A model generated the notes under the pieces. It did no database searches, was not told where the DNA came from, and saw only the letters and a program-made list of their open reading frames with translations. The position numbers and the translations under genes are program-made. Of a DNA stretch of 64,000 bases, positions 13,851 to 58,975 are shown one piece after another; position 1 is the first letter of the stretch; every line of letters starts with the position of its first letter. Origin of the DNA: Bacillus bingmayongensis (GTDB lineage Bacteria; Bacillota; Bacilli; Bacillales; Bacillaceae_G); contig NZ_JH921521.1 of the NCBI RefSeq assembly GCF_000299035.1, positions 150,647-214,646 of the forward strand, written 5' to 3'.

Positions 13851-13879
13851 CCAAGCCACACACTCCACATGAGTAGTAT
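13851..13879. repeat. attL: attL core, 29-bp direct repeat
   Basis: Identical over 29 bp to 57185-57213; flanking bases differ on both sides. On the minus strand the core continues in frame to WLKLV-stop, which is the expected uninterrupted end of the host methyltransferase. Confidence 0.93.
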
Positions 13880-45951: not shown

Positions 45952-45990
45952 TTCTCATTCCCCATTTCTTAATAAAATTCAAATTTGGCC

Positions 45991-46473
45991 TTACTTCACA
46001 TCGACACGATTCTGACTTGCTTCTCGACTAAATCCGTCCGGATATCTTTTAGCTAATTTTGCTATATTCATTTCAGCAATATCTTGTAAGGTATATCCAA
46101 TCTCATGAGCCATAATTGCTACATAGTACATAATGTCCCCTAGCTCTAATGCCAATTTATAAGTGTTTCCGTCTTCTTCTCCTGGACAATGAGCTGGTTG
46201 AAACCCATGTCCATGATAAATCGCTTTTTTAATAATATCGGCAACTTCACCAGCTTCTCCCGTAAGTCCTAAAGCCGCATTTGAAACACGTCCTCCAAAA
46301 TCGGTTTTGTTATTCCAAGTACGTAACGTTGCTTCTTGATAATCGTTTAATTCATCAATTGATAAGGCGTTAGCAATTTCTAATACAGTAGAATCTTTTA
46401 TAATGTGATCTCCTTTTTTCATTTCACTAATTAATTGAGTTATTCCAAATACACCGTTTTCGATTTCCTTCAT
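45991..46473 (-). CDS. MazG-like nucleotide pyrophosphohydrolase
   Basis: A 160-aa all-helical enzyme: the metal-binding EXXE is in GLTGEAGEVADIIKK and the second acidic pair in ELGDIMYYVAIMA. It hydrolyses (d)NTPs to monophosphates, which phages use to shape nucleotide pools or to lower alarmone signals. Confidence 0.8.
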   Translation of the reverse strand: MKEIENGVFGITQLISEMKKGDHIIKDSTVLEIANALSIDELNDYQEATLRTWNNKTDFGGRVSNAALGLTGEAGEVADIIKKAIYHGHGFQPAHCPGEEDGNTYKLALELGDIMYYVAIMAHEIGYTLQDIAEMNIAKLAKRYPDGFSREASQNRVDVK

Positions 46474-46488
46474 TTTCGTTCGCTCCTT

Positions 46489-46914
46489 TTAATAGCTTTT
46501 TTGTACTGTCTTTCTCTTCTTTACAGGCTTTGTCGCCGCTTCTAATGGATCCATATTTCTTTCGACTCTTTTATAAAATGTTTTTGGCTCGATCCCGTTC
46601 TCTATAGCGATCGCGACATAATTTTTATATTTTCCGTACGTTTCTTCTTTTGATGTAGTTGCTGCTTGATATGGTGTCATTCCTTCTCTTAGACGACGAT
46701 AATAAGTAGATTCACTAATTCCTGTCTTCTTAGCCAATCTCAGCATTTTCACATGCTTTTCTTTTCCTTCGTAACTTGTCCCTGGTGGGGAAGTAATTGT
46801 CCGTTCCACTGTCCATCCTTGACGTAATCTCTGATCTAATAACTTATTACTAACTCCAATCGATGCAGCTTGTTCCATTTCTTCAGCTGTCGGAACTGGA
46901 AGATAGTCCTTCAT
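46489..46914 (-). CDS. Triple HTH-repeat protein, about 141 aa
   Basis: Three related units are visible, each a helix followed by YxRxxxGMTPxQAAT-like text (LDQRLRQGWTVERTI; YYRRLREGMTPYQAAT; FYKRVERNMDPLEAAT). This is the pattern of repeated small HTH modules found in phage DNA-binding proteins. The ATG at 46914 is chosen over a GTG at 46926. Confidence 0.55.
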   Translation of the reverse strand: MKDYLPVPTAEEMEQAASIGVSNKLLDQRLRQGWTVERTITSPPGTSYEGKEKHVKMLRLAKKTGISESTYYRRLREGMTPYQAATTSKEETYGKYKNYVAIAIENGIEPKTFYKRVERNMDPLEAATKPVKKRKTVQKSY

Positions 46915-46928
46915 ATCCCTTACCACTC

Positions 46929-47204
46929 CTAATCCAATGCCATGATTTCCGCTCTCGTTCTTTTTGACTTAAATATTCCAATCTTCTGAATACTACGACC
47001 ATGTTCTAACTTCGCTTCTTCCCATGCTTCCTTCTCACTTTCAACATCAAACCAATCTATCTTCTGTCTTTCATCCTTGTCATAAAAATGAACTTCATAT
47101 GTTTTTACAGCTGGATCACACTTCAAGAATTGCTCAGCCGTACTCTTTGCCTTGTAATCAAAAGTTCCTAACAGATCATCGAATGTTAATTGTCCACTTC
47201 TCAT
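46929..47204 (-). CDS. Hypothetical phage protein, about 91 aa
   Basis: Acidic alpha/beta protein with YEVHFYDKDERQKIDWFDVESE then a helix. The start at 47204 has GGTGATGG upstream; a GTG at 47219 is possible. Unknown function. Confidence 0.5.
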   Translation of the reverse strand: MRSGQLTFDDLLGTFDYKAKSTAEQFLKCDPAVKTYEVHFYDKDERQKIDWFDVESEKEAWEEAKLEHGRSIQKIGIFKSKRTRAEIMALD

Positions 47205-47219
47205 ATTTCCATCACCCAC

Positions 47220-47450
47220 TTATCGAGGTTCTATTTTGCATAAATCGGCTTGATCCATCAAAAGAAGCATGACTTCTGTTTTATGACGTCTTAGCTTCTT
47301 GCAAATCTCAACAAAAGGAACTCCAGAACTCCACATCTCACGAAAACGAATCACGTCTCGTTCATCCCAAATATAATTTGCATCTTCTAATGCAACATAT
47401 ATTTTAAGACGTGATTCCTTCATTGCTTCGTGCTGCTGTGCCACTCCCAT
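47220..47450 (-). CDS. HTH-type phage protein, 76 aa
   Basis: WSSGVPFVEICKKLRRHKTEVMLLLMD fits a helix-turn-helix preceded by a DERDVIRFREM helix, like small regulators of phage early operons. GGAGATAGG lies upstream of the ATG. Confidence 0.55.
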   Translation of the reverse strand: MGVAQQHEAMKESRLKIYVALEDANYIWDERDVIRFREMWSSGVPFVEICKKLRRHKTEVMLLLMDQADLCKIEPR

Positions 47451-47480
47451 ATCCCTATCTCCTTTTCTTTTACGATTGAG

Positions 47481-47645
47481 TTATTTTATCTTTTCAGTGA
47501 ACTTTGTATCTACACGATCCACTTTCCCATTTACCCAAATAGCAACCTGTTCCCCAAATCCACTTGACGGTGGATTAACTGGAATAACTTGTCCATCCTT
47601 TACAACGTAAATTTTATTATTTGAAACATCGATTTCCACTTTCAT
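47481..47645 (-). CDS. DUF3954-like small protein, 54 aa
   Basis: ATG at 47645, TAA at 47481. Beta-rich: VSNNKIYVVKDGQVIPV followed by GFGEQVAIWVNGKV, the pattern of the DUF3954 family found in Bacillus phages. Function unknown. Confidence 0.6.
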   Translation of the reverse strand: MKVEIDVSNNKIYVVKDGQVIPVNPPSSGFGEQVAIWVNGKVDRVDTKFTEKIK

Positions 47646-47676
47646 GGACTTCTCTCCCTTTTTTCAAAACTGTTTA

Positions 47677-47868
47677 TTAACTAGCTTGTTGGTGTATTTT
47701 AGCTTCTACTTCTTGCATTTTCGCTTTACTATATTGCAACCACGCTTTCCATCGATCTTGATAAGTTGCTTCTTGTAATTGAGCAATCTCACATGTACAA
47801 GATTCAATTTTCACCGCACCTTTAAATGGTTCTGTATAAATAACACCTTTGCCATTGCATGCACACAT
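47677..47868 (-). CDS. Cysteine-containing phage protein, 63 aa
   Basis: CACNGKG near the N-terminus and CTC near residue 24 could bind zinc; the rest is a long helix. AAGGAGGAG lies upstream. It directly follows the DnaC-like gene. Confidence 0.5.
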   Translation of the reverse strand: MCACNGKGVIYTEPFKGAVKIESCTCEIAQLQEATYQDRWKAWLQYSKAKMQEVEAKIHQQAS

Positions 47869-47900
47869 TATTACTCCTCCTTAATTCGATTCGGTTTTAA

Positions 47901-48776
47901 TTAGAAAGGTAATGCTTTTTGACGTCTATCTGGTGTATTTTTGAATGTCATAGCCGACTTGCATCCTAGAATCCGAGATGTGATACGTTGGTCATAACAA
48001 TATGTGATTGCTGCGCCTACTAAATTTGTAGCAATTCCATTTGCCTTACCTTGTCTTCCGTCAAAGATTGTCATATAAGTGTCGTTCATATATTTTGTTG
48101 CTCTTTGAAGGTCACCTATATTCCCTTCTCCTTTTTTGTTATGGAACTCTAATGCTTTCAAATTAATATCTCGATAATCTCCCAACGTTGAACCGAAATC
48201 ATCAAAGATTACTACATCTGCATCAATTATCTTTTGCAAATAATCATCCTCAGATAGATTGGAATCTTTTTTAAACGTAGCTTTTAGTTTTTTGAATAAA
48301 ACACTTTCGCTTATGAATAAAACTGTTTGCGATCCACCCTCATTAATATCTTCAGCTATCGCATGCATTAAATGACTTTTCCCACGTCCAGCATCACCTG
48401 AAGCTACTAATGTATATTTCATATCATCGATAAAATTACGAGCATGTTCCTTAGCTTGTCCTTTGTTGTTTCTTTCTTCTTCACATTCCGGTACAAAGTT
48501 ATCAAACGTTGCATTCATGATAGTTGGATCACTAATTAAGCTGTAGTTATGAAAATAAGCCTTTCTTCTCCGTTCCTCTTCGCCCTGGTAATATTTATTG
48601 CATTCCTCAAACAATCTATCGTGATCTTGTTGTAAATAACACTTAGGACAAACCTCTTCTTCTCGAAAAATCATTGTTCGTTGTTTAATTCCTTTCGCTT
48701 TACAAACTTCACATAGGTTAGAAGTCAAATTCAGTTTCGCTGTAATAAACTGCGCCGTTTCTTGCAATCGCATCAT
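47901..48776 (-). CDS. dnaC: DnaC-like helicase loader ATPase
   Basis: A 291-aa AAA+ protein. An N-terminal zinc-binding set (Cys22, Cys25, Cys43, Cys46) is followed by Walker A GDAGRGKS (127-134) and Walker B VVIFDDFG, with a C-terminal Arg-rich sensor region (QRITSRILG). It loads the host replicative helicase at the phage origin, with the replisome organiser encoded immediately upstream (58-bp overlap). Confidence 0.85.
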   Translation of the reverse strand: MMRLQETAQFITAKLNLTSNLCEVCKAKGIKQRTMIFREEEVCPKCYLQQDHDRLFEECNKYYQGEEERRRKAYFHNYSLISDPTIMNATFDNFVPECEEERNNKGQAKEHARNFIDDMKYTLVASGDAGRGKSHLMHAIAEDINEGGSQTVLFISESVLFKKLKATFKKDSNLSEDDYLQKIIDADVVIFDDFGSTLGDYRDINLKALEFHNKKGEGNIGDLQRATKYMNDTYMTIFDGRQGKANGIATNLVGAAITYCYDQRITSRILGCKSAMTFKNTPDRRQKALPF

Positions 48777-49596
48777 TATTTTTCGCTCCTTTTACTGTTT
48801 CGTTTAAATAATTATCAAAATGTTTTTGCGCGAATAATGTACTTGGTCTTAAATACTGTTCTAACGGCTTTCCATCTCTATCAAATTTCCCTAGCCACTG
48901 TGATACTTTGTTATCGATTACTTTTTTAAAGTCATCAATTGTATACCCTTCATTCCATCTAGCTCTAATTAATTTCCTGTGGCCCTCTGCTTGATGGTTA
49001 TAATTCTTTTTTGCTTTCTCATTTAAATAATCAAGAATATCCTTATAGGGAATTGGTGCCGGCTTGTCCTCTTTGTTAGAAGAGGATTTATTATTTTCTT
49101 TATCTCTTTCTTTATCTTCTTCTAATTCTTCTTCTATATCTGTATCGTCACGTGACGTCACGGAAGCGTCACTATCATTACTCTTATTTTCTAGCGCCAG
49201 CTGTTGTTGTTTTTTACGTTCACGATACTTTTTATTTCTTTCTGCATTTAATTGTCGTACACGCTCTAGCCCATCCATATTCTGATGTTTCTCCCAATTT
49301 GAAATACATATATACTGATCTTCTGTAATTTCAATCATTCCAAATTGTTTAAATGTTTGAAGTGCTAACCTAACTGTTGCAATTGGTCTATTAAAAAGTG
49401 TTGCAAGCATTTCTTCTGAATAAGGAATGTTTTTGCTAAGAAAGATATAACCACTTGCATTCGTTTTTCCAGCTTGGGCTAATAATCTAATCCATATAAT
49501 AAGCAAAGTATCAGCTTCAGGCATACTCTCGATTAAACGTATTTTTTCATCTTCAAACATGCTAGTTGATAACTTTATCCATTTAACTTCTGACAA
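48718..49596 (-). CDS. Phage replisome organiser (DnaD-like)
   Basis: About 292 aa from a TTG at 49596, which has AGGAGG 7-8 nt upstream; the ATG at 49617 would place that site inside the gene. The N-terminal winged helix (WIKLSTSMFEDEKIRLIE, residues about 5-105) matches phage replisome organisers. A charged linker and a C-terminal conserved phage domain (YNHQAEGHRKLIRARWNEGYT) follow. It binds the origin and recruits the loader. Confidence 0.85.
   Translation of the reverse strand: MSEVKWIKLSTSMFEDEKIRLIESMPEADTLLIIWIRLLAQAGKTNASGYIFLSKNIPYSEEMLATLFNRPIATVRLALQTFKQFGMIEITEDQYICISNWEKHQNMDGLERVRQLNAERNKKYRERKKQQQLALENKSNDSDASVTSRDDTDIEEELEEDKERDKENNKSSSNKEDKPAPIPYKDILDYLNEKAKKNYNHQAEGHRKLIRARWNEGYTIDDFKKVIDNKVSQWLGKFDRDGKPLEQYLRPSTLFAQKHFDNYLNETVKGAKNNDAIARNGAVYYSETEFDF
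49146..49172. repeat. Iteron-like CGTCAC repeats, candidate origin
   Basis: Three copies of CGTCAC(G) at 49146-49152, 49156-49162 and 49167-49172, spaced about one helical turn, including the palindrome CGTCACGTGACG. They lie within the linker-coding part of the replisome organiser gene, a usual origin location in related phages. Confidence 0.45.
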
Positions 49597-49601
49597 TGTA
49601 T

Positions 49602-49784
49602 TTACCTCCTCACACAAATCGCCACATGTGATTCTCCGCTTTTGATGATTTGTTGAATCTCATAATCTGGATAACTAACACTGAAATAGTGTTCAATCAT
49701 TTGTTTTAATTCTTTTTCATCATTTGCTTTCTCCCAAAATTTCCGAGGTAACAGTACTTGATAAGGAACTAGATTTATCTGCAT
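49602..49784 (-). CDS. Hypothetical phage protein, 60 aa
   Basis: Small alpha/beta protein (LLPRKFWEKANDEKELKQMIEHYF then VAICVRR). Its end overlaps the region upstream of the replisome organiser start. Unknown function. Confidence 0.45.
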   Translation of the reverse strand: MQINLVPYQVLLPRKFWEKANDEKELKQMIEHYFSVSYPDYEIQQIIKSGESHVAICVRR

Positions 49785-49805
49785 GTACTACTTACTCACT
49801 TTCCG

Positions 49806-49862
49806 TGATATACTATTTACAAGTTGATTTTCTTAAGGGACCCATTGCCGTGGGTCTTTTTA
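49806..49862 (+). ncRNA. Candidate short plus-strand RNA f
   Basis: Extended -10 TGATATACT at 49806-49814, RNA about 49821-49862 ending in GACCCA-TTGCCG-TGGGTC (49839-49856) and T5. It overlaps the 3' end of the minus-strand membrane gene. Confidence 0.45.
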
Positions 49863-49981
49863 TTTTGTGATTCATCACTCCCTGCCCATCTTTGAATCGG
49901 TTTAGATGTGATATGAACTATTAAAATCAAAGTAACAAATACTGTTGCGAAAATTGCTAATGAACCTGTATCTTCCATCAT
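49817..49981 (-). CDS. Single-span membrane protein, 54 aa
   Basis: The start at 49981 overlaps the upstream stop (ATGA) and has GGAG before it. One hydrophobic helix (SLAIFATVFVTLILIVHI), then a polar tail. Unknown function. Confidence 0.5.
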   Translation of the reverse strand: MMEDTGSLAIFATVFVTLILIVHITSKPIQRWAGSDESQNKKTHGNGSLKKINL

Positions 49982-50328
49982 GCTGTTGCACTCCTTTCTA
50001 ACCAATTAAAGAATGCATCTCTTGGTACTACTTTCTTACGACCAATCCTTACTAATGGAAACCCTTTTTGATCCATAATGTCATAAGCTGTTCTTTGGGC
50101 AACTCCTAATATTTCTTTCACATGATCAACATTCAACATAATTGGATAATCATTTGCACTATCATAAGTAACTGGAACATTGTCTAGTTTTTCTACTGTT
50201 GTTTGTCTATCATCTTCTTTATTAGAACGAAGTAATTCGATAGCTTCCCAAAATTCTTCATCCTTCCAACCTTTTTGTGCTGACAATTTTGTAATACTTA
50301 ATGCTATTTGAACTGTTGAATTATTCAT
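49978..50328 (-). CDS. HTH DNA-binding protein, 116 aa
   Basis: The ATG at 50328 has GGAAG upstream. The C-terminal HTH_17 module (VDHVKEILGVAQRTAYDIMDQKG followed by VRIGRKKVVPRDAFFNWL) is complete. Phage early DNA-binding protein between Rha and the replication genes. Confidence 0.65.
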   Translation of the reverse strand: MNNSTVQIALSITKLSAQKGWKDEEFWEAIELLRSNKEDDRQTTVEKLDNVPVTYDSANDYPIMLNVDHVKEILGVAQRTAYDIMDQKGFPLVRIGRKKVVPRDAFFNWLERSATA

Positions 50329-50373
50329 ATTTACACTTCCTTTTTCCTTATTTATAAAATTAAAATCTTGCAA

Positions 50374-51096
50374 TTATGAAACATGGTCATCAAATAAATT
50401 AGGTCTCTCCAGCGGATACCATCCAGATATGAATTTCATTGCATTTTGATAATATTTTCGTGGTATCTTATCGTATTTAGCTACACCGAAATGTCTTTTT
50501 AATGCTCCATATATCCCTTGATAAGATGCATTATCATAACCTTCTTTTCTTAGTTCAAAAACACGTTGTTTTACTTTTCGTTGAACAGCTCCTTTATTCT
50601 GTTCAGTGAGCCAAATCTCGTTATCTACTAAAAGTTTCATTTTATTTAATTCTTCTTCTGTATGATTCTGGCGTTCTTTAATTTGTTTCAACTCCGTCAT
50701 ACTATGGATGATTGCATCCTCAACAGAAGGTTGTTGCTGCTGTTCAATGTATTCTTTCATTCGTTTGAACTCTTCGATGAATTTCACTTTCATTTTCATT
50801 GCTTCAATTGTTGTATAAGACATCATCACCATTACAAATCCATCTTCTGTTAAATCGTATTTTGATCTCCATTCTTTCTTAGCGTCGTAGTAGCCAACCG
50901 GCGCAATGTTGCGTTGGTTAAATTCAACTTCACCAGCTTCGTTAAGTTTTTCTACATGCTTTCTGATATCTCTTAATACATCAGAGTGACGTTTACCTAA
51001 AACTTCAGCTAGTGTCAAACTGTCAGTTATAACTTCGTTTTCTTTCATAAACACCAATTTACTTACTGGCTCTTGTGCAACTTGTATTTGACTCAT
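50374..51096 (-). CDS. Rha-family antirepressor-like protein with ORF6C domain
   Basis: A 240-aa protein from the ATG at 51096 (AAAAGGAGG upstream). An N-terminal Rha domain (SLTLAEVLGKRHSDVLRDIRKH; KYDLTEDGFVMVMMSYT) and a C-terminal ORF6C-like domain (QRVFELRKEGYDNASYQGIYGALKRHFGV). Rha proteins interfere with infection when IHF is lacking and act as regulators. The promoter region carries a copy of the operator bound by the neighbouring repressors. Confidence 0.83.
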   Translation of the reverse strand: MSQIQVAQEPVSKLVFMKENEVITDSLTLAEVLGKRHSDVLRDIRKHVEKLNEAGEVEFNQRNIAPVGYYDAKKEWRSKYDLTEDGFVMVMMSYTTIEAMKMKVKFIEEFKRMKEYIEQQQQPSVEDAIIHSMTELKQIKERQNHTEEELNKMKLLVDNEIWLTEQNKGAVQRKVKQRVFELRKEGYDNASYQGIYGALKRHFGVAKYDKIPRKYYQNAMKFISGWYPLERPNLFDDHVS

Positions 51097-51143
51097 TTTC
51101 TTTCCTCCTTTTGTATTTAAGGTCAAGTCCTAATCACTTAATA

Positions 51144-51156
51144 TGACCTAAGGTCA
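51144..51156. promoter_or_regulatory. Operator O1, upstream of rha
   Basis: Perfect 13-bp palindrome TGACCTAAGGTCA between the rha start and the cro stop, flanked by half-sites at 51119-51125 and 51177-51183. Confidence 0.75.
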
Positions 51157-51181
51157 AGTTTGTATCCTTTTAAAAATGACC

Positions 51182-51376
51182 TTATCCTACTAAGTCATCC
51201 ATTGTTGTTGATAGTGAATTTGCTATCTTTTTTAAGTTTTCTATACTTGTTGATTTTCCACCTGATTCGATCTTAGAAATCATACTCTCACTGATATCTG
51301 AGAGTTTTCCAAGTTGCTTTTGTGTAAGATTATTTCTTTTGCGAAGTTCTCTTATGTAACTCCCTTTTATTTTCAT
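51182..51376 (-). CDS. Cro-like XRE regulator, 64 aa
   Basis: ATG at 51376 with GAGAGGTGA upstream. Nearly the whole protein is an XRE helix-turn-helix (IRELRKRNNLTQKQLGKLSDISESMISKIESGG). It is divergent from the CI-like gene with operators between them, the classic Cro position at the head of the early operon. Confidence 0.82.
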   Translation of the reverse strand: MKIKGSYIRELRKRNNLTQKQLGKLSDISESMISKIESGGKSTSIENLKKIANSLSTTMDDLVG

Positions 51377-51402
51377 CAGCTTCACCTCTCGATTACATTT
51401 TC

Positions 51403-51431
51403 ATTGTACAATTAACATGACCATAGGTCAA
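51403..51431 (-). promoter_or_regulatory. Early lytic promoter (cro)
   Basis: Read on the minus strand: TTGACC, 17-bp spacer, TACAAT. The -35 overlaps operator O2. Confidence 0.8.
51418..51430. promoter_or_regulatory. Operator O2, in the cro promoter
   Basis: TGACCATAGGTCA, a 13-bp inverted repeat differing from O1 only at the centre. Binding would block the -35 box of the early promoter. Confidence 0.78.
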
Positions 51432-51469
51432 GTATTTGTTTAAAATTTATTTTTTATTAAACAAGAAAT

Positions 51470-51482
51470 GGACTGTGGGTCA
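51470..51482. promoter_or_regulatory. Operator O3, near the CI promoter
   Basis: GGACTGTGGGTCA matches O2 at 9 of 13 positions. It overlaps the expected -35 of the plus-strand repressor gene (TATACT near 51499-51504), fitting autoregulation. Confidence 0.55.
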
Positions 51483-51568
51483 AGTTTTATGTAGAATATA
51501 TACTATAGCATTGTAAAACAAAAGTATTGCAAATAAATCTAAAATAGTTTTTAAAGGGGAATTTGAAT

Positions 51569-51925
51569 ATGTTACCTATACTATCCATTAGGATAAAAGA
51601 ATTAAGGAAAGAGAAAAAGTGGTCTCAAAAAGAATTAGGGGAACGAGTAGACGTTAGCGAATCATTCATCTCAAAAGTAGAATCTGGAAAGAAACAACCT
51701 TCTAGGGAAGTAACTACTAAAATTGCTGAAGTATTAAACGTAACTACTGATTATTTATTAGGTAGAAGTGATGAAGAAGATCTAAACGAACTGTTAGATG
51801 TGAAATTTAAAGAAATGAAAGAGCGATTAGCTAATCTTCCAAAATCGCAACGTGAAGTAATTATGAAACAGGCAGAAAACTTAATGGAAGAATTCGAAAA
51901 ACTAAATAACAACTCGATAAAATAG
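51569..51925 (+). CDS. CI-like phage repressor (XRE)
   Basis: 118 aa from the ATG at 51569 (AAAGGGG upstream). XRE domain in residues about 8-65 (IKELRKEKKWSQKELGERVDVSESFISKVESGK), with a short acidic helical C-terminal dimerisation tail and no peptidase domain, so RecA-driven self-cleavage is not expected. Divergent from cro and likely the maintenance repressor of the lysogen. Confidence 0.83.
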   Translation: MLPILSIRIKELRKEKKWSQKELGERVDVSESFISKVESGKKQPSREVTTKIAEVLNVTTDYLLGRSDEEDLNELLDVKFKEMKERLANLPKSQREVIMKQAENLMEEFEKLNNNSIK

Positions 51926-51952
51926 CCAACCCCATTATGAGGCGTGGCTATT
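51921..51952 (+). terminator. Terminator of the CI-like gene
   Basis: AATAGCCA / TGGCTATT (51921-51928 and 51945-51952), then T5. It overlaps the 3' end of the convergent 43-aa gene. Confidence 0.8.
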
Positions 51953-52066
51953 TTTTTGTTCTGTATTAAATAGCATTTCGATATATGAATCAATCGCCTG
52001 TTCATCGTTGTTAGATAATTCAGCAACTTGCAATAAAAATCCCTTTAAAATTTCGTCTCTAGTCAT
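51935..52066 (-). CDS. Acidic 43-aa protein in the aimX position
   Basis: ATG at 52066 placed by GGAGG 9 nt upstream. Acidic helical protein (MTRDEILKGFLLQVAELSNNDEQ, then a second helix DSYIEML). It is the first gene downstream of aimR-aimP on the same strand, separated by a palindrome, and is convergent with the CI-like gene. No sequence similarity to known AimX is claimed; the assignment is positional. Confidence 0.55.
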   Translation of the reverse strand: MTRDEILKGFLLQVAELSNNDEQAIDSYIEMLFNTEQKNSHAS

Positions 52067-52095
52067 CCCCGACATCCTCCAATATCTCCATATTA

Positions 52096-52116
52096 GTTTG
52101 TGAATTGTTCACAAAC
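52096..52116. promoter_or_regulatory. 21-bp palindrome, candidate AimR operator
   Basis: Perfect inverted repeat with 9-bp arms (GTTTGTGAA, 3-nt centre, complement). On the minus strand it falls between a weak -35 (TTTACG) and -10 (TAATAT) set about 20 bp apart, the layout of an activator-dependent promoter, upstream of the acidic 43-aa gene. Confidence 0.6.
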
Positions 52117-52166
52117 GTAAAATTTTAACTTGTTTCACTAAAAAGTTTTATAGCCTATAATGCACG

Positions 52167-52195
52167 AAAGACGCTACCTAGGTAGCGTCTTTTTT
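52167..52195 (+). terminator. Palindromic hairpin downstream of aimP
   Basis: 12-bp perfect arms (AAAGACGCTACC at 52167-52178 and complement at 52181-52192), with T6 on the plus strand and only T3 on the minus strand. For aimR-aimP transcripts it would be a leaky terminator. Confidence 0.65.
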
Positions 52196-52213
52196 AAATC
52201 CCTTGTTTTAGGC

Positions 52214-52351
52214 TCAAAGCCCACCGGGATCAGTCACCATATATTGAATTGTAGGTGTAACATTTGAATTGGCACTAATTTTTGTATCCGCCTTATGTAC
52301 TAATGTGCATAAGGTAAAGGTACAGATTATTGTTGCTATAATTTTTTTCAC
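52214..52351 (-). CDS. aimP: AimP-type communication prepeptide
   Basis: 45 codons starting at a GTG that directly follows the aimR stop codon, with AGGTGA upstream inside aimR. Residues 1-18 are a secretion signal (KKIIATIICTFTLCTLV). The exported part ends IQYMVTDPGGL. Size, signal, immediate placement after aimR and a short C-terminal pheromone segment are the features of AimP. The mature peptide should come from the C-terminus; its exact ends cannot be told from sequence. Confidence 0.8.
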   Translation of the reverse strand: MKKIIATIICTFTLCTLVHKADTKISANSNVTPTIQYMVTDPGGL

Positions 52352-53491
52352 TTAGCTCACCTGCTCTTTCGTTAAGGCTTCACGAACAGCCTGCATATAA
52401 TATATATTACCATTTTTGGCAAGTTCTAGCAACGCTTTATTAAGATATTCTGTCCTTTTTTCTGGTCTAGCATAGGCGTAATAATACCATTGAAAACCAG
52501 TCAAATTTCCGTTCTCTTCTAGTAATTCATTTAACAACTTAATAGCAAGGTTTCGATCACCAAACTTCGCTTCAAAAAAAGCAATTTCGGCTTTATCTAT
52601 TGCTGTAAAATCAATTTTATCAAGATTAAAGTTATGTTCTATGTAAAGAAAAGCTAATGTTGTATGAAATGATTTGTATTTTCTAGTTTTCTGTGCAGAA
52701 GATACTTCTTTTAATAAACTAATAGATTCTAGGATGTACTTTTCAGCTTTTAAAATTTCTCCCGAAAATATATAAGATTCCCCAATGCAACATAATGCTG
52801 TGGCTTTAGTGATTAAAGCATTAAAACTTGATTCTACGACTTTATTAGCTATCCTACGGCTTTCACTAACATTATTATTTAGAAGCTGTATATAGGCTTG
52901 GCGCTCATAAAAATGTAATTCTACACATTGTTTTACAAACTTATTTTTTACTTTTGGCAGTGCATTTCTAGCGTTATCAGCATGCGGAAGCATCGCGCTA
53001 TAATTCCCATGGTCATACATACATACCGTTAATAACAGTTCAATAAGTATTTGACGGTCTACGTCTTCTATTTTTGTTAGTTTATTGACCAAATTACTTA
53101 ATTCTTGTCCACGCGCCTCATTACGATTTCTCTTATTGAAAAGTTCATATACATCAATATATCTTTGTAAACTTTCATTTTCTTTATATTTTCTAATTAA
53201 ATATTGAATCGTGTCATATTCCCCAGCTGCTTGACAATAAAAAAGAGCTTTTTTTACATTCAAATCACTTATGCATTTCATTGCGAATTTTTTTATCTTC
53301 AATCTAATTTCTTTTTGATTACCATACACTTCATTTAACAACTTCAAAAAATTATCAAATTTCATTTCGAATTTCCCATTGAGTCCATTGCTAAGTGTCG
53401 TACTACTAACACCTATTTTTATAGCTAGATCATTTCTAACCATATTGTTGGAATCAATAAAATCTCGCACTTCTTTCATTAACTTCTTCAT
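52352..53491 (-). CDS. aimR: AimR-family lysis-lysogeny pheromone receptor
   Basis: 379 aa from the ATG at 53491 (TTAGGAGGAG upstream; an ATG at 53527 would engulf that site). An N-terminal helix-turn-helix (VRNDLAIKIGVSSTTLSNGLNG) is followed by TPR-like helical repeats to the C-terminus (ATALCCIGESYIFSGEILKAEKY; LAIKLLNELLEENG). This is the AimR/Rap-type RRNPP layout. The HTH, the phage immunity-region location and the adjoining secreted peptide favour AimR over Rap. Peptide binding would stop it activating its target promoter and so favour lysogeny. Confidence 0.87.
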   Translation of the reverse strand: MKKLMKEVRDFIDSNNMVRNDLAIKIGVSSTTLSNGLNGKFEMKFDNFLKLLNEVYGNQKEIRLKIKKFAMKCISDLNVKKALFYCQAAGEYDTIQYLIRKYKENESLQRYIDVYELFNKRNRNEARGQELSNLVNKLTKIEDVDRQILIELLLTVCMYDHGNYSAMLPHADNARNALPKVKNKFVKQCVELHFYERQAYIQLLNNNVSESRRIANKVVESSFNALITKATALCCIGESYIFSGEILKAEKYILESISLLKEVSSAQKTRKYKSFHTTLAFLYIEHNFNLDKIDFTAIDKAEIAFFEAKFGDRNLAIKLLNELLEENGNLTGFQWYYYAYARPEKRTEYLNKALLELAKNGNIYYMQAVREALTKEQVS

Positions 53492-53585
53492 TTTTGCTCC
53501 TCCTAATGGAACAAAGACTTCGCTCATTTTCTCAACTGTTTTAACGGGAATTTAATACCATAGTAATGTTTTAGTATTATCGGCA

Positions 53586-53716
53586 TGTTATAATGTAAAT
53601 GTTACTCGTGAAGTGACCGAAAATAGACTTATGGCAGATGTTCCCTCTTGTGAGTCGAGGCGAACGGTGTAAGAGTGGGCGAACACTACTTACACACGCT
53701 GTGAGTCTTTTTTTCG
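53586..53716 (+). ncRNA. Structured RNA divergent from aimR
   Basis: Extended -10 TGTTATAAT at 53586-53594. The RNA, about 115 nt, contains a stem GTGTAAGAGTG (53667-53677) with its complement (53684-53695, one bulge) and ends at a T7-8 tract near 53707-53714. No ORF. It points away from aimR and towards the SOS-box regulator. Confidence 0.55.
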
Positions 53717-53872
53717 TTCCTTTTATTTAGTTTTCATAATACCACAAATTTCCCAATATTCGGTCATAGAGTTATCTGATATTTATTGAGAAAGTTTAAA
53801 AATCGCTACAAATTGACATTTCTTGTATGAGAAAACCCATAAGAATATTTTACCACATAAAAACAAAAATGA

Positions 53873-53884
53873 GAACGAACGTTC
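53873..53884. promoter_or_regulatory. LexA (DinR)-type SOS box
   Basis: GAACGAACGTTC matches the core GAAC-N4-GTTC of the Bacillus LexA box. It lies 104 bp before the XRE gene start. Confidence 0.6.
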
Positions 53885-53932
53885 TTTTTATTTTCCATTC
53901 AACTATACTCAGCAATCATATTATCATATACT

Positions 53933-53947
53933 GATTGTTTTACAATC
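53933..53947. promoter_or_regulatory. Short palindrome upstream of the second XRE gene
   Basis: GATTGT-TTT-ACAATC, embedded in A/T-rich promoter-like DNA. Possibly the autoregulatory operator. Confidence 0.45.
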
Positions 53948-53987
53948 ATATATAGTATATTGGATTTCTAAAGACTATACTCGAATT

Positions 53988-54341
53988 ATGAAAGCGTTAG
54001 AAGTGTTTGGACAAAATTTAAAGAAGCTTAGAAAATCTAGAGATTTAACTCAAGAACAACTCGGTGAAAAACTAAACCTCAGTCGTAATCAGATAAATAA
54101 TTATGAGAATGCAATGTTTGAGCCGAGTATGGAAACTATCCTTCAGATCAGATCATTTTTCGGTGTATCGCTAGACTTTCTTTTTAATGGATATAGCGAT
54201 ACGAATGACAAAATGTTACGTAACACTCTCAAAGAAGTTCAACAAACGTATGCGGCGCTAGATGAATTTCAGAGAGAGCGTTACTGTAAACAACTCTTAT
54301 TTTACTCAAAAGCTTTAGCTGAAAATGACGAGTTGTTATGA
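53988..54341 (+). CDS. XRE regulator, 117 aa
   Basis: Start at the ATG at 53988, without a strong ribosome-binding site. XRE HTH at residues about 8-65 (LKKLRKSRDLTQEQLGEKLNLSRNQINNYENA), then a C-terminal helical domain. It is a second plus-strand repressor-like protein between the arbitrium genes and the integrase, with an SOS-type box upstream. It may control the integrase or induction. Confidence 0.78.
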   Translation: MKALEVFGQNLKKLRKSRDLTQEQLGEKLNLSRNQINNYENAMFEPSMETILQIRSFFGVSLDFLFNGYSDTNDKMLRNTLKEVQQTYAALDEFQRERYCKQLLFYSKALAENDELL

Positions 54342-54371
54342 TTTGATTTTAGAAGAAATGTTTTCCAATTT

Positions 54372-54428
54372 CAAATTGTAAAATATTCATTTTTTTACAA
54401 TTTGAGCAAGAGAGCTATTAGCTCTCTT
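54372..54428 (+). terminator. Double hairpin terminator
   Basis: A 12-bp inverted repeat (54372-54383 and 54393-54404) followed by AAGAGAGCT / AGCTCTCTT (54408-54416 and 54420-54428) and T7. Confidence 0.82.
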
Positions 54429-54530
54429 TTTTTATTTGTCTATTCGACATAATATAACAATTTATCAATACCATATTTGTTATGCTAACTTCAGAAATCT
54501 TACATTTTATATAATTGGAGGAATTGTATT

Positions 54531-55325
54531 ATGAAGAAACCATTCTATAAAAAATGGTGGTTCTGGGTTATTGCTGTCATTGTAGTATTAGGAATTGCCG
54601 GAAATATTGGTAGTAAAAAAGAAGATACTACAAAAGTTTCTACCGAAGTAAAGAAGGAACCACTTAAAGAGGAAGCTAATTCAGAAGCTAAAGAAGAACA
54701 ATCTAGAAAATCAGTAAAAGAGTTTACAGAAGAATTAAAAAGACCTATTCAAAATAATGCATCAAAACAAGAAGAGAATGCCCCAAAAATAAAACCAGAA
54801 ACTAAAAAAGAAGAACCAGCAAAACAAGAACAGCCTAAACAAGAAGAAACAAAAACTAATGTGAATTCAGATAAAACCACTTATGAAAATGAAATAAAAC
54901 CCAAAATTGATTCCATGATAAAAGAGTATGATGAGATATGGAATCAAGAATGGCGACCAGTTTGGACTGAAGTAAGCAAAGATGTTTCATCTATGGATCC
55001 AAATGTTTTAAAAGAAAAAATGGAACTCATTTCAAATAAATACGATACACTCTCTAAAAAAAATACAGAATTTAAAGATACTGAAAAGCTACACGATCCA
55101 GTTCTAAAAGAAAAAATCGAGAAATTTAGAGTGGAATTTGGTTTAGCAACTAACTATAGAAGTAATGCTGCAAACGCTGTGCAACAAGGTTTAAAAGGAG
55201 TTGCTCCAATGAAAGGAAGAATGGAAGAGGCTCAAAAATCGATTAAACTTTCCGATCAAAAAATTATTAATGCTACGGCTAGTTTAGTTGAAACCGAAAC
55301 AGAGTTAGGCATTAAACGTAACTAA
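54531..55325 (+). CDS. Membrane-anchored extracellular protein, candidate superinfection exclusion
   Basis: 264 aa. A single N-terminal helix (WWFWVIAVIVVLGIAGNI, residues about 9-26) is followed by a Lys/Glu/Gln-rich tether (about 30-115) and a helical outer domain (about 120-264) with an aromatic WNQEWRPVWTEV segment. It is expressed on the lysogenic strand between regulator and integrase, where Gram-positive phages often carry superinfection-exclusion or host-surface genes. That role is inferred from topology and place only. Confidence 0.65.
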   Translation: MKKPFYKKWWFWVIAVIVVLGIAGNIGSKKEDTTKVSTEVKKEPLKEEANSEAKEEQSRKSVKEFTEELKRPIQNNASKQEENAPKIKPETKKEEPAKQEQPKQEETKTNVNSDKTTYENEIKPKIDSMIKEYDEIWNQEWRPVWTEVSKDVSSMDPNVLKEKMELISNKYDTLSKKNTEFKDTEKLHDPVLKEKIEKFRVEFGLATNYRSNAANAVQQGLKGVAPMKGRMEEAQKSIKLSDQKIINATASLVETETELGIKRN

Positions 55326-55585
55326 GTTCATAGGTCAATATCTCAAATAAAATACTGATTTTGTATCAATAAAAAAAGCCCACAAATTTTGTGGACTTAG
55401 AAGTATGGATACGTATATTTTACCATAGATTTTTATTTTGTGGACCTTCATAAACTTACTATTCATTCTCCGCTATCTGCGTTGACCAAAAAATAAGATT
55501 ATGGTATATTTGCACTAGAATCACCACTGTATAGTGAATATATATTTACTATATAGTGAGTATGACACTTATCTGAATTGCATAG
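55326..55585. other. Intergenic region before the toxin locus
   Basis: A hairpin at 55378-55398 (AGCCCACAAA with a near-complement) probably ends the upstream gene. Repeated TATAGTGA motifs near 55539-55562 look promoter- or operator-like. No gene was found. Confidence 0.5.
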
Positions 55586-55702
55586 AATAAAAGAAGAGAT
55601 GCTGTAACATCTCTTCCAGTAACTGCCGCCATCAGATGGCAAGGTTGCTATTTATTTTCTTTTAGAGCTACCCTGCTTCCTACGGCGAGGGGTGGCTCTT
55701 TT
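55562..55702 (+). ncRNA. Candidate antitoxin RNA
   Basis: ATGACA (55562-55567), 15-bp spacer and TAGAAT (55583-55588) give a start near 55595. The RNA would end at the hairpin AGAGCTACCC / GGGTGGCTCT (55664-55673 and 55690-55699) with a T tract. It would overlap the 3' part of the minus-strand toxin mRNA by over 100 nt. Confidence 0.45.
55593..55616 (-). terminator. Terminator of the candidate toxin mRNA
   Basis: GAAGAGATG / CATCTCTTC (55593-55601 and 55608-55616), then TTTTATTC on the minus strand. Confidence 0.75.
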
Positions 55703-55810
55703 ACTTTTCTTAAACAAGCTGTTAGCAAACTTATTTGCATAAGCTGTAACAACTATAGTTAGGAATACCTTGAGTAAATCCTGAGACAAAGAAAGTAAAT
55801 ATTCCATCAT
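55652..55810 (-). CDS. Candidate type I toxin, 52 aa
   Basis: Small hydrophobic protein: one membrane helix (LLSLSQDLLKVFLTIVVTAYA) then a very basic tail (KKSKRATPRRRKQGSSKRK). The start at 55810 or 55807 has an unusually complete anti-Shine-Dalgarno match, AAAGGAGGTGA, 9 nt upstream. That site lies in a 10-bp stem. MRNA 3' end and an overlapping plus-strand RNA fit BsrE/BsrG-like type I systems. No sequence family is claimed. Confidence 0.6.
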   Translation of the reverse strand: MMEYLLSLSQDLLKVFLTIVVTAYANKFANSLFKKSKRATPRRRKQGSSKRK

Positions 55811-55820
55811 AAGGGTCACC

Positions 55821-55849
55821 TCCTTTCTCTCTAAAATACAGAGAAAGGA
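55821..55849 (-). promoter_or_regulatory. Stem masking the toxin ribosome-binding site
   Basis: TCCTTTCTCT (55821-55830) is perfectly complementary to 55840-55849 with a 9-nt loop. In the minus-strand mRNA the AGAGAAAGGA arm contains the first half of the AAAGGAGG site, so translation would need this stem to open. Confidence 0.65.
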
Positions 55850-55895
55850 TAGCAACCAGCCACCCGACGTATACAGTTGAATATAGTTTACCATA

Positions 55896-55918
55896 AAGTA
55901 ACTCAAATGAGTTACTTT
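55896..55918 (+). terminator. Hairpin just before the integrase promoter
   Basis: AAGTAACTC / GAGTTACTT with a 4-nt loop, then TTTCCTTTTT. TATAAT for the integrase follows at 55927-55932. Confidence 0.6.
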
Positions 55919-55983
55919 TTCCTTTTTATAATACTGGAATTATCTGTGCTATTAGAATACTATTGATTCAAGGAGGTATGGAT

Positions 55984-57108
55984 ATGAAAGGATATTTTAG
56001 AAAGCGTGGTACAAAGTGGTCATTTACAATTGATATTGGTCGCGATCCGCTCACAGGTAAAAGGAAACAAAAAACAGTATCAGGCTTTAAAACAAAGAAA
56101 GAAGCCGAAAGAGCATGTAATGAACTTACTCATCAATTTAATACCGGAAGTCTAGTTGATGATAAGAATCTTACTCTCAGTGAATATTTACAAGAGTGGC
56201 TTGAAAACACAGCTAAGCAACGAGTGAGAGAAACTACATTTATCAATTATAGACGAGCTGTGAACAGTAGGATTATCCCTGTACTTGGTTCACAAAAACT
56301 AAAAGACTTAAAACCCCTGCATGGGCAACGATTTGTTAAATCACTAATCGATGAAGAATTATCTCCTAAATATATTGAATATATTTTTGTTGTTTTAAAA
56401 GGGGCATTAGAAGATGCGGTTAAATGGGAACTTCTATATAAAAACCCATTTGAGCATGTAGAAATTCCTCGACCACGAAGAGTGGTCAATAATACGTGGT
56501 CAATTGAGGAGACAAAAACATTTTTAACATATGCTAAATTTGATAATCCTATCTACTACCATTTATTTTTACTTGCACTCAATACAGGTATGCGTAGAGG
56601 TGAGTTACTAGGTTTAAAGTGGAAAAATGTAGATTTAGTTGAAGGTAAGATCAGTGTGACGGAAACTCTAATTTACGATGAATTAGGATTTCGATTTACA
56701 GAACCAAAAACATCAGGTTCTAAACGTTTAATTTCCATCGACCAAAACTTATGTAAAGAGTTAAAAAGTTATAAAGTAAAACAAAGTGAATTTAAATTAT
56801 CCATTGGTACAGCTTATAAAGATAATGATTTAGTCTTCTGTAGAGAAGATGGTCAGCCAATATATCCAAGAACATTAACTACTGTTTTTGAAAGGTTTGT
56901 AAAAACATCACAAGTTCCTAAAATTAGATTCCATGACTTACGACACACTCATGCTACACTTCTTCTTAAATTAGGCATTAATCCAAAAGTCGTAAGTGAA
57001 CGATTAGGGCATAATTCTATTAAGACCACATTGGACACTTATAGTCATGTTACATTAGATATGCAAGAAAGTGCCACTATAGCACTAAGTGAGGCTTTAA
57101 AATCATAA
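55984..57108 (+). CDS. int: Prophage integrase (tyrosine recombinase)
   Basis: 374 aa from the ATG at 55984 (AAGGAGG 7 nt upstream; the ATG at 55978 is too close). An N-terminal arm-type DNA-binding domain (residues about 1-55, GYFRKRGTKWSFTIDIGRD) is followed by the core-binding domain (about 65-165) and the catalytic domain with TGMRRGELLGLKW, HDLRHTHAT and LGHNSIKTTLDTYSH (Arg, His-x-x-Arg, Tyr). It lies 77 bp from the attR core, which it is expected to recombine. Confidence 0.92.
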   Translation: MKGYFRKRGTKWSFTIDIGRDPLTGKRKQKTVSGFKTKKEAERACNELTHQFNTGSLVDDKNLTLSEYLQEWLENTAKQRVRETTFINYRRAVNSRIIPVLGSQKLKDLKPLHGQRFVKSLIDEELSPKYIEYIFVVLKGALEDAVKWELLYKNPFEHVEIPRPRRVVNNTWSIEETKTFLTYAKFDNPIYYHLFLLALNTGMRRGELLGLKWKNVDLVEGKISVTETLIYDELGFRFTEPKTSGSKRLISIDQNLCKELKSYKVKQSEFKLSIGTAYKDNDLVFCREDGQPIYPRTLTTVFERFVKTSQVPKIRFHDLRHTHATLLLKLGINPKVVSERLGHNSIKTTLDTYSHVTLDMQESATIALSEALKS

Positions 57109-57157
57109 AATAATTGTTGATGTGGTCCGAATGTGGTCAAACCCATCAACAATTATT
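57109..57157. repeat. Inverted repeat with arm-type sites next to attR
   Basis: 14-bp perfect arms (57109-57122 and 57144-57157) enclose or touch two GTGGTC copies (57122-57127 and 57133-57138). It can act as the integrase terminator and as an arm site. Confidence 0.55.
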
Positions 57158-57166
57158 ATGAAATCC

Positions 57167-58546
57167 CTATATATCAAGGCTTAACCAAGCCACACACTCC
57201 ACATGAGTAGTATGCGGGAACATATCAACAGGTTGTACTTCCTGTGTTTTATATCCGCCTTCTTCTAATACTTTTAAGTCACGTGCAAGTGTCGCCGGGT
57301 TACATGATACGTATACGACACGCTTTGGCTTCATATCAATGATTGTGTTTAGTAATGCTTCATCACAACCTTTACGCGGTGGATCAACGACGATTGTATC
57401 CGCGATTATGCCTTCTTTGTACCAGTTTGGAATGACTACTTCTGCTTCTCCAACTGCAAATTCAGCGTTTGTCATGTTGTTTAGTGCCGCATTTCGGTTT
57501 GCGTCTTCGATTGCTTCTGGGACGATTTCAACGCCATATACTTTCTTTGCTTTTTGCGCTAAGAATAGCGAGATTGATCCGATTCCACAATATGCGTCGA
57601 TGACTGTTTCGTTTCCATCTAGCTTTGCATATTCTAATGCTTTATCATATAGCACCTTCGTTTGTTCTGGATTTACTTGATAGAAAGAACGTGCTGAGAT
57701 AGCAAATTTAATGTCACCGATAAAGTCATAAATGTATTCTGATCCGTATAGGACTGTTGTTGTGTCTCCGAAGATTACGTTTGTGCGTTTCGTATTTACG
57801 TTTTGAACAATTGATTTTACATTTGGGAACTTCGCTGTAATTTCTTCGATGATTGCCTTTTTATTCGGAAGTTCTACCGTACGTGTAATGAAGACAAGCA
57901 TAATTTCCCTTGTTACTTGTCCATAACGAGCCATCACGTGACGAAGTGTTCCTTTATGACGTTCTTCGTTATACGCCGCGATACCGTGTTTTTCGCAAAT
58001 ACGTTTTACTTCTTGAATTAACGTATCGTTTTCTTCTGCTTGAATTAAGCATGTTTCCATATTAATGATGTCATGCGTCCCTTGGCGGTAGAAGCCAGCT
58101 ACAAGTCCGCCTTCACGTTCTCCAATTGGCACTTGTGCTTTGTTTCGATATACCCACGGGTTTTCCATACCAAGAACAGGATGAACTGGTACATCATGAA
58201 GTCCACCGATACGCTCAATCACGTCACGTACTTGTTTTTCCTTCGCCTTTAGTTGTCCTTCATACGTTAAGTGCTGAAGCTGACAACCGCCGCATTGATT
58301 GTAAACTGGGCACTCTGCATCTTTACGATACGGGCTTTCTGTATGAAGCTTCATTAAACGACCAAATGCGAAGTTTTTCTTTACTTTAATAACCTTAATT
58401 TGTGCTTCTTCACCTGGTAATCCGTTTTTCACGAAAATAGGATATCCTTTTACTTTCGCAACACCGGCACCATCATGTGTTAAATCTTCAAATACTACAT
58501 CTATAAACTCGTTTTTTTCAACTGGTGGCGTCATTTTATTAACCAT
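57167..58546 (-). CDS. RlmD/YfjO-type (uracil-5-)-methyltransferase
   Basis: 459 aa from the ATG at 58546 (GAGAGG upstream). An N-terminal TRAM domain (residues about 12-68) is followed by an iron-sulfur-type cysteine set (Cys79, Cys85, Cys88), the SAM domain ([16 protein letters not shown]) and the catalytic loop [15 protein letters not shown]. It methylates uridine C5 in rRNA or tRNA. The prophage is integrated at its 3' end: the core encodes THVECVAW and the lysogen reads LSLDI instead of LKLV, so the enzyme should stay active. B. subtilis yfjO next to yfjN (dus) has the same order. Confidence 0.88.
57185..57213. repeat. attR: attR core, 29-bp direct repeat
   Basis: Identical to 13851-13879. 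It lies in the last codons of the minus-strand methyltransferase gene; phage-derived DNA beyond it supplies LSLDI and a stop. Confidence 0.93.
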
Positions 58547-58682
58547 TTTCCGACCTCTCTTTTTCATAACACTGCGTTACATTTTATCATACTTATATGG
58601 TCTTTTTCTATTGGAAGAAAAAAAGCTATTGACGGTGCTTCTCTATTAATGTTACGCTACTACTAATTTAATACGGACGATG

Positions 58683-58757
58683 TTACCTCATATATACTTG
58701 ATAATATGGATCGAGAGTTTCTACCCGGCAACCGAAAATTGCTGGACTATGGGGAAA
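58683..58757 (+). promoter_or_regulatory. Purine riboswitch aptamer, guanine type
   Basis: Contains the conserved three-way junction text: ATATGG after P1, TTTCTACC and GGCAACCG in the loops, and GACTATGG closing the junction. The C in GACTATG, at the position equivalent to C74, indicates guanine or hypoxanthine rather than adenine. P1 pairs CCTCATA with TATGGGG. Confidence 0.9.
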
Positions 58758-58787
58758 ACTAATGAATATTAGCTTGTTTGTGTATAC

Positions 58788-58848
58788 AAAGACTCATATT
58801 GATTAGCTTTCTCTCATAGATGAAAGTGAATCCATATGAGTCTTTTTT
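58788..58848 (+). terminator. Riboswitch expression platform terminator
   Basis: AAAGACTCATAT (58788-58799) pairs perfectly with 58834-58845, followed by T6. Purine binding should favour termination, making this an off-switch. Confidence 0.85.
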
Positions 58849-58975
58849 ATTTTTTACTTTTCTAAAAGGTCAGACATCTTACGTATGACATAAAACTTCT
58901 CCTATTTTATTTATTAGTTATATAACGAGCGTTTTATGCAAAAACTTTATACGAACTTCTGAAAGGGGCAACTAC

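What the first reader, a model, noticed from the sequence alone, without database searches (positions are those of the whole stretch)
51935..53491. Arbitrium communication module in a B. cereus-group prophage
An AimR-like receptor (HTH plus TPR helices), a 45-codon secreted prepeptide starting one base after its stop (C-terminus YMVTDPGGL), and a small acidic gene downstream form an aimR-aimP-aimX-like order on one strand, beside the CI/Cro switch. The peptide end differs from the RGA-ending SPbeta/phi3T pheromones as I recall them, so this may be a distinct signalling specificity.
Basis: partly seen in the sequence, partly recalled or inferred. Interest (0 to 1): 0.88.

Follow-up and report, generated by a model that had tools for sequence, protein, structure and literature searches.

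The report
Phage signalling module with swappable output
A prophage of a Bacillus cereus-group bacterium carries a peptide messaging module that probably helps it choose between killing its host cell and hiding in it; the module is of a known kind, but comparing relatives suggests that its sensor half is reshuffled against an output half, a tiny protein that travels with one particular repressor tail.

Summary
52352-53491(-) is an AimR receptor (NCBIfam AimR equivalog, 355 bits, cutoff 70), followed at once by a prepeptide ending YMVTDPGGL, then a 43-46 aa acidic ORF (X) convergent with a CI-like repressor, in a 43 kb prophage with 29-bp att repeats. PGG-type pheromones are in print (phage B83 ...MADPGGSVG; Wbeta EIKPGG), so the peptide is no new kind.

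Relatives are the interesting part. Sensor (aimR-aimP-hairpin-palindrome) and output (X + CI) recombine: 16 AimR types and 9 X types make 25 combinations, yet X and the CI C-terminal tail pair one-to-one in 36 of 36 collapsed loci. X is under protein-level selection (dN/dS 0.09-0.25). Hairpin and palindrome lie 51-53 nt apart in 26 of 26 loci that have both, the order of the phi3T antitermination switch. My reading: AimR antiterminates X; X, a cognate antagonist of CI, favours lysis; peptide reverses this. AimR binding, antitermination and X-CI contact are inferred; plain linkage of X to CI is a serious rival. A covarying RNA lies divergently beside aimR in 32 of 36 loci, and also beside a second gene family elsewhere.

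The parts
52352..53491 (-). aimR, peptide receptor (HTH + TPR-like helices), 379 aa
   Evidence: NF038310 355 bits; PF22871 106 bits; phrog_1728; best Foldseek hits are AimR, from a low-confidence model
52214..52351 (-). aimP, prepeptide with signal-like N-terminus, 45 aa, C-terminus YMVTDPGGL
   Evidence: GTG start on the base after the aimR stop; PG-containing C-termini in relatives
52167..52192 (-). hairpin downstream of aimP, candidate terminator controlled by AimR
   Evidence: -16.5 kcal/mol for 52150-52205, z -3.1; in relatives a hairpin ends 51-53 nt before the palindrome in 26 of 26 collapsed loci that have both; not reported by the consensus terminator scan
52096..52116 (.). palindrome GTTTGTGAA-N3-TTCACAAAC, candidate AimR operator
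   Evidence: only match in the window with up to 3 mismatches, 0.11 expected; one exact 17-nt core copy in each of 77 of 282 fetched loci (many are the same contig fetched again), none in the 80 host-gene loci L026-L105
51935..52075 (-). X, small acidic protein in the aimX position (likelier start 52066)
   Evidence: PHROG 28567, unknown function; dN/dS 0.14 over 12 distinct family members; type tracks the CI tail in 36 of 36 collapsed loci
51919..51954 (.). inverted repeat between the convergent ends of X and the CI-like gene, possible two-way terminator
   Evidence: 10-nt arms, 100% complementary, 16 nt apart
51563..51925 (+). CI-like repressor: N-terminal HTH and about 50-residue C-terminal tail (ATG at 51569)
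   Evidence: HTH_3 E 2e-17; phrog_8 E 8e-26
51418..51430 (.). candidate CI/Cro operator TGACCATAGGTCA
   Evidence: two copies in 25 of 25 entries of the window's CI type (17 distinct records, window included)
51144..51156 (.). second candidate CI/Cro operator TGACCTAAGGTCA
   Evidence: in the window alone the motif with up to 2 mismatches is within chance (2 found, 1.61 expected)
51182..51376 (-). Cro-like HTH protein
   Evidence: HTH_3 E 1.1e-16
53605..53720 (+). divergent structured RNA candidate (three-way junction, about 90 nt from helix P1 to its U-tract)
   Evidence: z -3.8; 96.7% of pair cells kept and 19 two-sided changes against 6.6 in shuffles; model hits in 32 of 36 AimR loci, 12 of them held out
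53988..54341 (+). divergent HTH protein beyond the RNA; differs between loci with near-identical AimR
   Evidence: HTH_3 E 2e-16; different in L109 and L110
55978..57108 (+). tyrosine integrase of the prophage
   Evidence: Phage_integrase E 4e-30
57185..57213 (.). right att repeat, inside the 3' end of a host ORF (57167-58567, rRNA methyltransferase-like by recall, not family-searched)
   Evidence: 29-bp exact repeat of 13851-13879; 585 stretches in bacterial genomes encode a relative of this ORF
13851..13879 (.). left att repeat

Best explanation
An arbitrium sensor whose output is a small protein matched to the phage's own CI-like repressor. Steps: (1) aimR and aimP are made and AimP is secreted and trimmed (inferred from family). 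(2) Peptide-free AimR binds the palindrome about 52 nt beyond the hairpin and lets polymerase read through into X (inferred from conserved geometry and from phi3T/SPbeta). (3) X binds the C-terminal tail of the convergently encoded CI and weakens it, favouring lysis (inferred from one-to-one co-inheritance and protein-level selection). (4) As peptide builds up, AimR is switched off, X stops and CI holds lysogeny (inferred from family). The sensor block and the X-CI block are exchanged between phages, with the change-over near the palindrome (shown by comparison; the mechanism of exchange is not shown).
For: AimR equivalog and prepeptide. Hairpin-to-palindrome gap 51-53 nt in 26 of 26 collapsed loci that have both, while palindrome-to-X varies 38-50 and aimP-to-hairpin 14-36. 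In phi3T and SPbeta the order is aimP-terminator-AimR site-aimX, AimR is an antiterminator, and changing the distance abolished function in phi3T reporters (PMC10769878 section 7). The palindrome stays with closely related AimRs across five X/CI types and its exact core is absent from 80 host-gene loci. X type and CI-tail type pair 1:1 in 36 of 36; 16 AimR and 9 X types give 25 combinations (22 with 11 AimR types at a looser cut). X-tail distance r 0.90, partial 0.63 given HTH and AimR (p 0.0005, the floor of 1999 permutations); X-HTH partial 0.12; X-AimR partial -0.09. HTH differs (0.42) with tail (0.75) and X (0.78) alike: L136/L148; HTH alike (0.94) with tail (0.50) and X (0.40) changed: L002/L170. 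X dN/dS 0.14, 0.25, 0.24 and 0.09 in four families.
Against: X and the CI tail are neighbours, their stop codons 4-51 nt apart, so plain linkage could give the pairing. X was picked in each locus by similarity to nine X seeds taken from these same loci, so a tenth kind could have been missed or forced. No contact, binding or transcription was shown. SPbeta and phi3T AimR operators are two 6-mers 25 bp apart, unlike this compact palindrome; 10 of 36 collapsed loci have an AimR but no such palindrome, and four X-CI loci with no AimR found (L107, L116-L118) keep a copy with 1-2 mismatches, no worse than some AimR loci. The palindrome resembles the Rex box TTGTGAAW4TTCACAA. AimR recognition helices vary although the palindrome does not. 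In phi3T AimX does not bind the master repressor but MazF and phi3T_93. The window's hairpin has a poor U-tract on the aim strand and the terminator scan did not report it.
Confidence: 0.5

Rival explanations
1. Ordinary arbitrium system with linkage only: X is carried along because it lies beside CI, and its target is something else (for example a host toxin, as AimX of phi3T).
For: X and CI stops are 4-51 nt apart; recombination between conserved ends would move X and tail as one block; phi3T AimX binds MazF and phi3T_93, not the master repressor.
Against: No X-tail break in 36 of 36 although breaks occur on both sides, including inside CI; X stays with CI in four loci where no AimR was found.
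Confidence: 0.35
2. The output is RNA: read-through from aimP runs antisense into cI and X coding is incidental (cis-antisense, an older proposal for arbitrium).
For: A convergent CI-like gene was found in 82 of 84 AimR-bearing entries (the script looked for that orientation); PMC10769878 says a cis-antisense action on the repressor had been widely assumed (passage).
Against: X changes are mostly synonymous (dN/dS 0.09-0.25 in four families); a possible terminator lies between X and CI in the window.
Confidence: 0.15
3. The palindrome is bound by a host regulator such as Rex, tying the switch to the NADH/NAD+ state rather than to AimR.
For: Arms match the Rex box TTGTGAAW4TTCACAA (PMC2883068, abstract in a search listing); 5 of 26 sites have the 4-nt centre of a Rex box; loci with no AimR found keep a near copy.
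Against: 21 of 26 have a 3-nt centre; one exact core copy per matching locus and none in 80 host-gene loci; fixed 51-53 nt from the hairpin.
Confidence: 0.12

Closest known systems
Arbitrium of phage vB_BtS_B83 / AimR clade 7 (PMC6669507, passages; the clade paper Stokar-Avihail 2019 not held)
   Same: aimR-like, aimP-like (pro-peptide ending YYMADPGGSVG), then a small ORF, among CI/Cro-like genes
   Different: peptide end TDPGGL here; the passages give ORF40 only as a possible aimX-like ORF of unknown function and name no operator; no direct comparison, as B83 did not appear or 43
phi3T / SPbeta arbitrium (PMC10769878 section 7 and passages; PMC6458997 and PMC8612738 passages)
   Same: aimP, terminator, AimR site, aimX order; AimR fold family
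   Different: peptide GMPRGA for SPbeta; operator two 6-mers with a 25-bp spacer; no cI-like repressor found there; phi3T AimX targets MazF and phi3T_93
Wbeta-type arbitrium (PMC8878798, passages)
   Same: AimR/AimP beside a CI-like repressor, peptide ending PGG (EIKPGG/TIKPGG)
   Different: the KPGG-type AimR loci seen here (L125, L128-L131; peptide ends read by eye) lack this palindrome, and where testable match the RNA model weakly or not at all

Membership tests
Arbitrium (AimR family) | AimR receptor by curated model | tested here: met
   NF038310 355 bits over cutoff 70; PF22871 106 over 26.7
Arbitrium (AimR family) | small prepeptide with signal-like N-terminus immediately downstream, same strand | tested here: met
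   45 aa, GTG on the base after the aimR stop, hydrophobic N-terminus by reading; no signal-peptide program was run
Arbitrium (AimR family) | carried by a temperate phage or other mobile element | tested here: met
   integrase, att repeats, phage-like ORFs read by eye
Arbitrium (AimR family) | terminator and AimR site between aimP and aimX | tested here: inconclusive
   hairpin and palindrome at conserved 51-53 nt; terminator activity and binding untested
Arbitrium (AimR family) | mature short peptide switches AimR and lysogeny | not testable with these tools
   needs peptide assays
SPbeta/phi3T subtype | AimR operator of two 6-mers with 25-bp spacer | tested here: inconclusive
   a compact palindrome lies in the expected place; no dedicated scan for 25-bp-spaced boxes was made and binding is untested
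AimR clade 7 (B83-like) | placement in the published AimR tree | tested here: inconclusive
   peptide ends alike; B83 not met and the clade paper not held
Rap / PlcR / NprR | best match to those receptors | tested here: not met
   no such Pfam or NCBIfam hit at E up to 1; none in the 50 Foldseek rows shown of 1161

The most novel reading that the evidence does not exclude
In B. cereus-group arbitrium phages the output of peptide signalling is a family of small proteins, each a private antagonist of the C-terminal tail of its own CI repressor, so that phages trade signal receptors and repressor-antagonist pairs as two interchangeable cartridges joined at an AimR site held about 52 nt from a terminator, with a divergent structured small RNA as a further common part.
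Probability: 0.4. Interest if true: 0.78.

Novelty: new variant of a known kind. Interest (0 to 1): 0.56.

Why it matters
What arbitrium does outside the SPbeta group is open: no cI-like repressor was found in SPbeta-like phages (PMC8612738, passage), whereas this module sits against one. If X is a matched CI antagonist, the signal would have a direct route to the repressor, and the nine X/tail types with natural domain swaps give a ready specificity panel. Exchange of sensors against outputs would also show how phages could change language without changing immunity.

Tried and rejected
Receptor against solved-structure sequences: no AimR found by sequence. Rfam on 45000-60000: only a purine riboswitch. 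Upstream divergent HTH as the palindrome's binder: rejected, it differs between L109 and L110, which share the site. X families: PHROGs of unknown function for 6 of 7 queries (one of them weak, E 0.0055), no Pfam hit over its cutoff. The RNA as exclusive to arbitrium: rejected, 10 of 93 sites lie beside a second gene family. AlphaFold model: pLDDT 65, weak support only. No paper found that assigns a function to X or describes the RNA, in searches (listings; I read passages or a section of eight papers); Stokar-Avihail 2019 could not be read, so it may hold either.

Full report
Observation. The receptor is AimR by curated models: NF038310 355 bits (cutoff 70), Pfam AimR 106 bits (cutoff 26.7), PHROG 1728 339 bits. 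No Rap, PlcR or NprR model was hit at E up to 1. A low-confidence AlphaFold model (pLDDT 65) ranks AimR structures 6s7i (E 1.3e-4) and 5zw5 (2.9e-4) first. The prepeptide begins on the base after the aimR stop. The prophage is bounded by a 29-bp exact repeat, 13851-13879 and 57185-57213, the latter inside the 3' end of a host ORF.

Known kind. Phage B83 has an AimP-like pro-peptide ending YYMADPGGSVG, assigned to AimR clade 7 (PMC6669507, passages), and Wbeta phages EIKPGG or TIKPGG (PMC8878798, passages). So PGG-type ends in this host group are in print. The clade paper itself is not held.

Relatives. I annotated 95 entries, the window included; 91 gave an X and a CI-like gene (L119 and L135 gave no X, L149 and L165 no CI). 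Of the 91, 82 carry AimR. After removing duplicates and collapsing near-identical combinations, 36 AimR loci remain. The loci were found by AimR or CI queries, so types are not a random sample, and several entries are one contig fetched twice, which collapsing removes. X was chosen by similarity to nine seeds taken from these loci.

Two blocks. Four loci whose AimR is 93-94% (L002, L008, L009) or 81% (L010) identical to the window's carry four other X types and four other CI types. Conversely, CI relatives at 83-90% identity carry recognisable X but other AimR-AimP types, or no AimR in the stretch fetched (L107, L116-L118; about 2 kb was available for L117 and 1 kb for L118). Five further rows without AimR end too close to judge (L123, L124, L133, L168, L176). 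At 80% AimR identity there are 16 AimR, 9 X, 9 CI-tail and 9 HTH types; AimR-X combinations number 25, X-tail combinations 9, i.e. one-to-one in 36 of 36; HTH-tail combinations number 11; a looser AimR cut gives 11 AimR types and 22 AimR-X combinations with the X-tail result unchanged. Distance correlations: X-tail 0.90, X-HTH 0.83, X-AimR 0.19 (each p 0.0005, the floor); partial X-tail given HTH and AimR 0.63 (p 0.0005), X-HTH 0.12 (p 0.008), X-AimR -0.09 (p 0.997), 1999 permutations. Natural swaps: L136 and L148 have HTH 0.42 but tail 0.75 and X 0.78 identical; L002 and L170 have HTH 0.94 but tail 0.50 and X 0.40. X is selected as protein: pooled dN/dS 0.14 (12 distinct sequences), 0.25 (16), 0.24 (9), 0.09 (6); the CI families give 0.12-0.16. 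Linkage remains a real rival, because X and CI stops are 4-51 nt apart.

Hairpin and palindrome. Between aimP and X lie a hairpin (52167-52192; z -3.1) and a palindrome (52096-52116). In 26 of the 36 collapsed loci a site with at most two mismatches to TGTGAA...TTCACA is found, and in all 26 the best hairpin (8 or more pairs) between aimP and the site ends 51-53 nt before it, mean 52.0, sd 0.83; palindrome to X start has sd 4.2 and aimP to hairpin sd 7.0 (25 loci). Spacer identity between nine representative types is 0.49-0.79 (shuffled 0.51-0.59), so some homology remains and the fixed distance may be partly shared descent. Ten collapsed loci lack the palindrome (L111, L125, L126, L128, L130, L131, L132, L166, L167, L186); a hairpin is present in several of them. 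The exact 17-nt core occurs once in each of 77 of 282 fetched loci (repeat fetches included) and in none of the host-gene loci L026-L105. In phi3T and SPbeta the order aimP, terminator, AimR site, aimX works by antitermination, and altering the terminator-site distance abolished it in phi3T reporters (PMC10769878 section 7). Known AimR operators are two 6-mers 25 bp apart (PMC6458997, passages), so the site here, if AimR binds it, is of another geometry. It also resembles a Rex box, though 21 of 26 have a 3-nt centre, and loci with no AimR found keep a copy with 1-2 mismatches.

CI side. All 25 entries of the window's CI type (17 distinct records) have two 13-bp TGACC-N3-RGTCA sites near cI and cro, whatever the AimR type, which fits an output block with its own operators.

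Divergent RNA. A stretch at 53605-53720(+) folds at -42.7 kcal/mol, z -3.8. Twenty aligned sequences support three helices (96.7% of cells paired; 19 two-sided changes against 6.6 in shuffles). A covariance model built from those 20 finds it in 32 of 36 collapsed AimR loci, that is in 12 of 16 not used for building (some near-identical to the builders); L125, L130 and L182 had no sequence upstream of aimR and L131 is a true miss; 0 of 4 loci without AimR match at E 0.01. On the model-fitted alignment 98.5% of cells pair, with 54 two-sided changes against 11.5 (such an alignment leans towards its structure). In a search of 52 sources, 15 had hits below 1e-4, all of them AimR loci; the best of 24 host-gene loci was E 0.017 and the SPbeta-like L015 0.78. 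TATAAT stands upstream of helix P1 in 23 of 26 listed sequences (about 7-11 nt in 14, about 30 nt in 9 including the window), and a U-run follows P1, which suggests a free-standing RNA. An independent DNA-pattern scan of viral contigs gave 93 stretches. Reading all 93 on the right strand: AimR lies beside the RNA in 81, a second gene family (relatives of the L190 protein; HTH_36-like, below Pfam's cutoff) in 10, and 2 end within 450 nt and show neither. Among the 75 with 1.5 kb or more on that side it is 67 and 8. So the RNA is associated with arbitrium but not exclusive to it. No Rfam family matched.

Judgement. Arbitrium membership is near certain (about 0.95, my estimate). AimR antitermination through the palindrome is likely; X as a matched CI antagonist is a reasoned proposal that linkage could mimic. 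Interest is moderate: known system, with a testable output design that I did not find described. The check changed counts, not odds.

Noticed in passing
window 53605-53720 (+); relatives in alignments A4, A5: Covarying structured RNA, divergent from aimR, no Rfam match; of 93 sites found by DNA pattern 81 lie beside AimR, 10 beside a second HTH-like gene family (L190, L201, L211, L221, L222, L223, L242, L265, L272, L280), 2 too short to tell.
   Followed up: partly
L125, L128-L131: KPGG-type AimR loci (L125 and L131 read EIKPGG by eye, the Wbeta peptide) share the X/CI type of L009 but have no TTGTGAA palindrome: probably another operator.
   Followed up: partly
L111, L166, L167, L186: AimR loci without the palindrome but with a hairpin after aimP; L166, L167 and L186 show a loosely similar AT-rich site about 52 nt downstream (read by eye).
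   Followed up: no
L107, L116-L118: X and CI kept without a detectable AimR; the palindrome differs by one or two bases.
   Followed up: partly
window 58668-58769 (+): Purine riboswitch ahead of an ORF at 58976 that looks like a nucleoside transporter (name recalled).
   Followed up: no
window 50374-51096 (-): Rha/ORF6C antirepressor-like gene next to the Cro-like gene.
   Followed up: no
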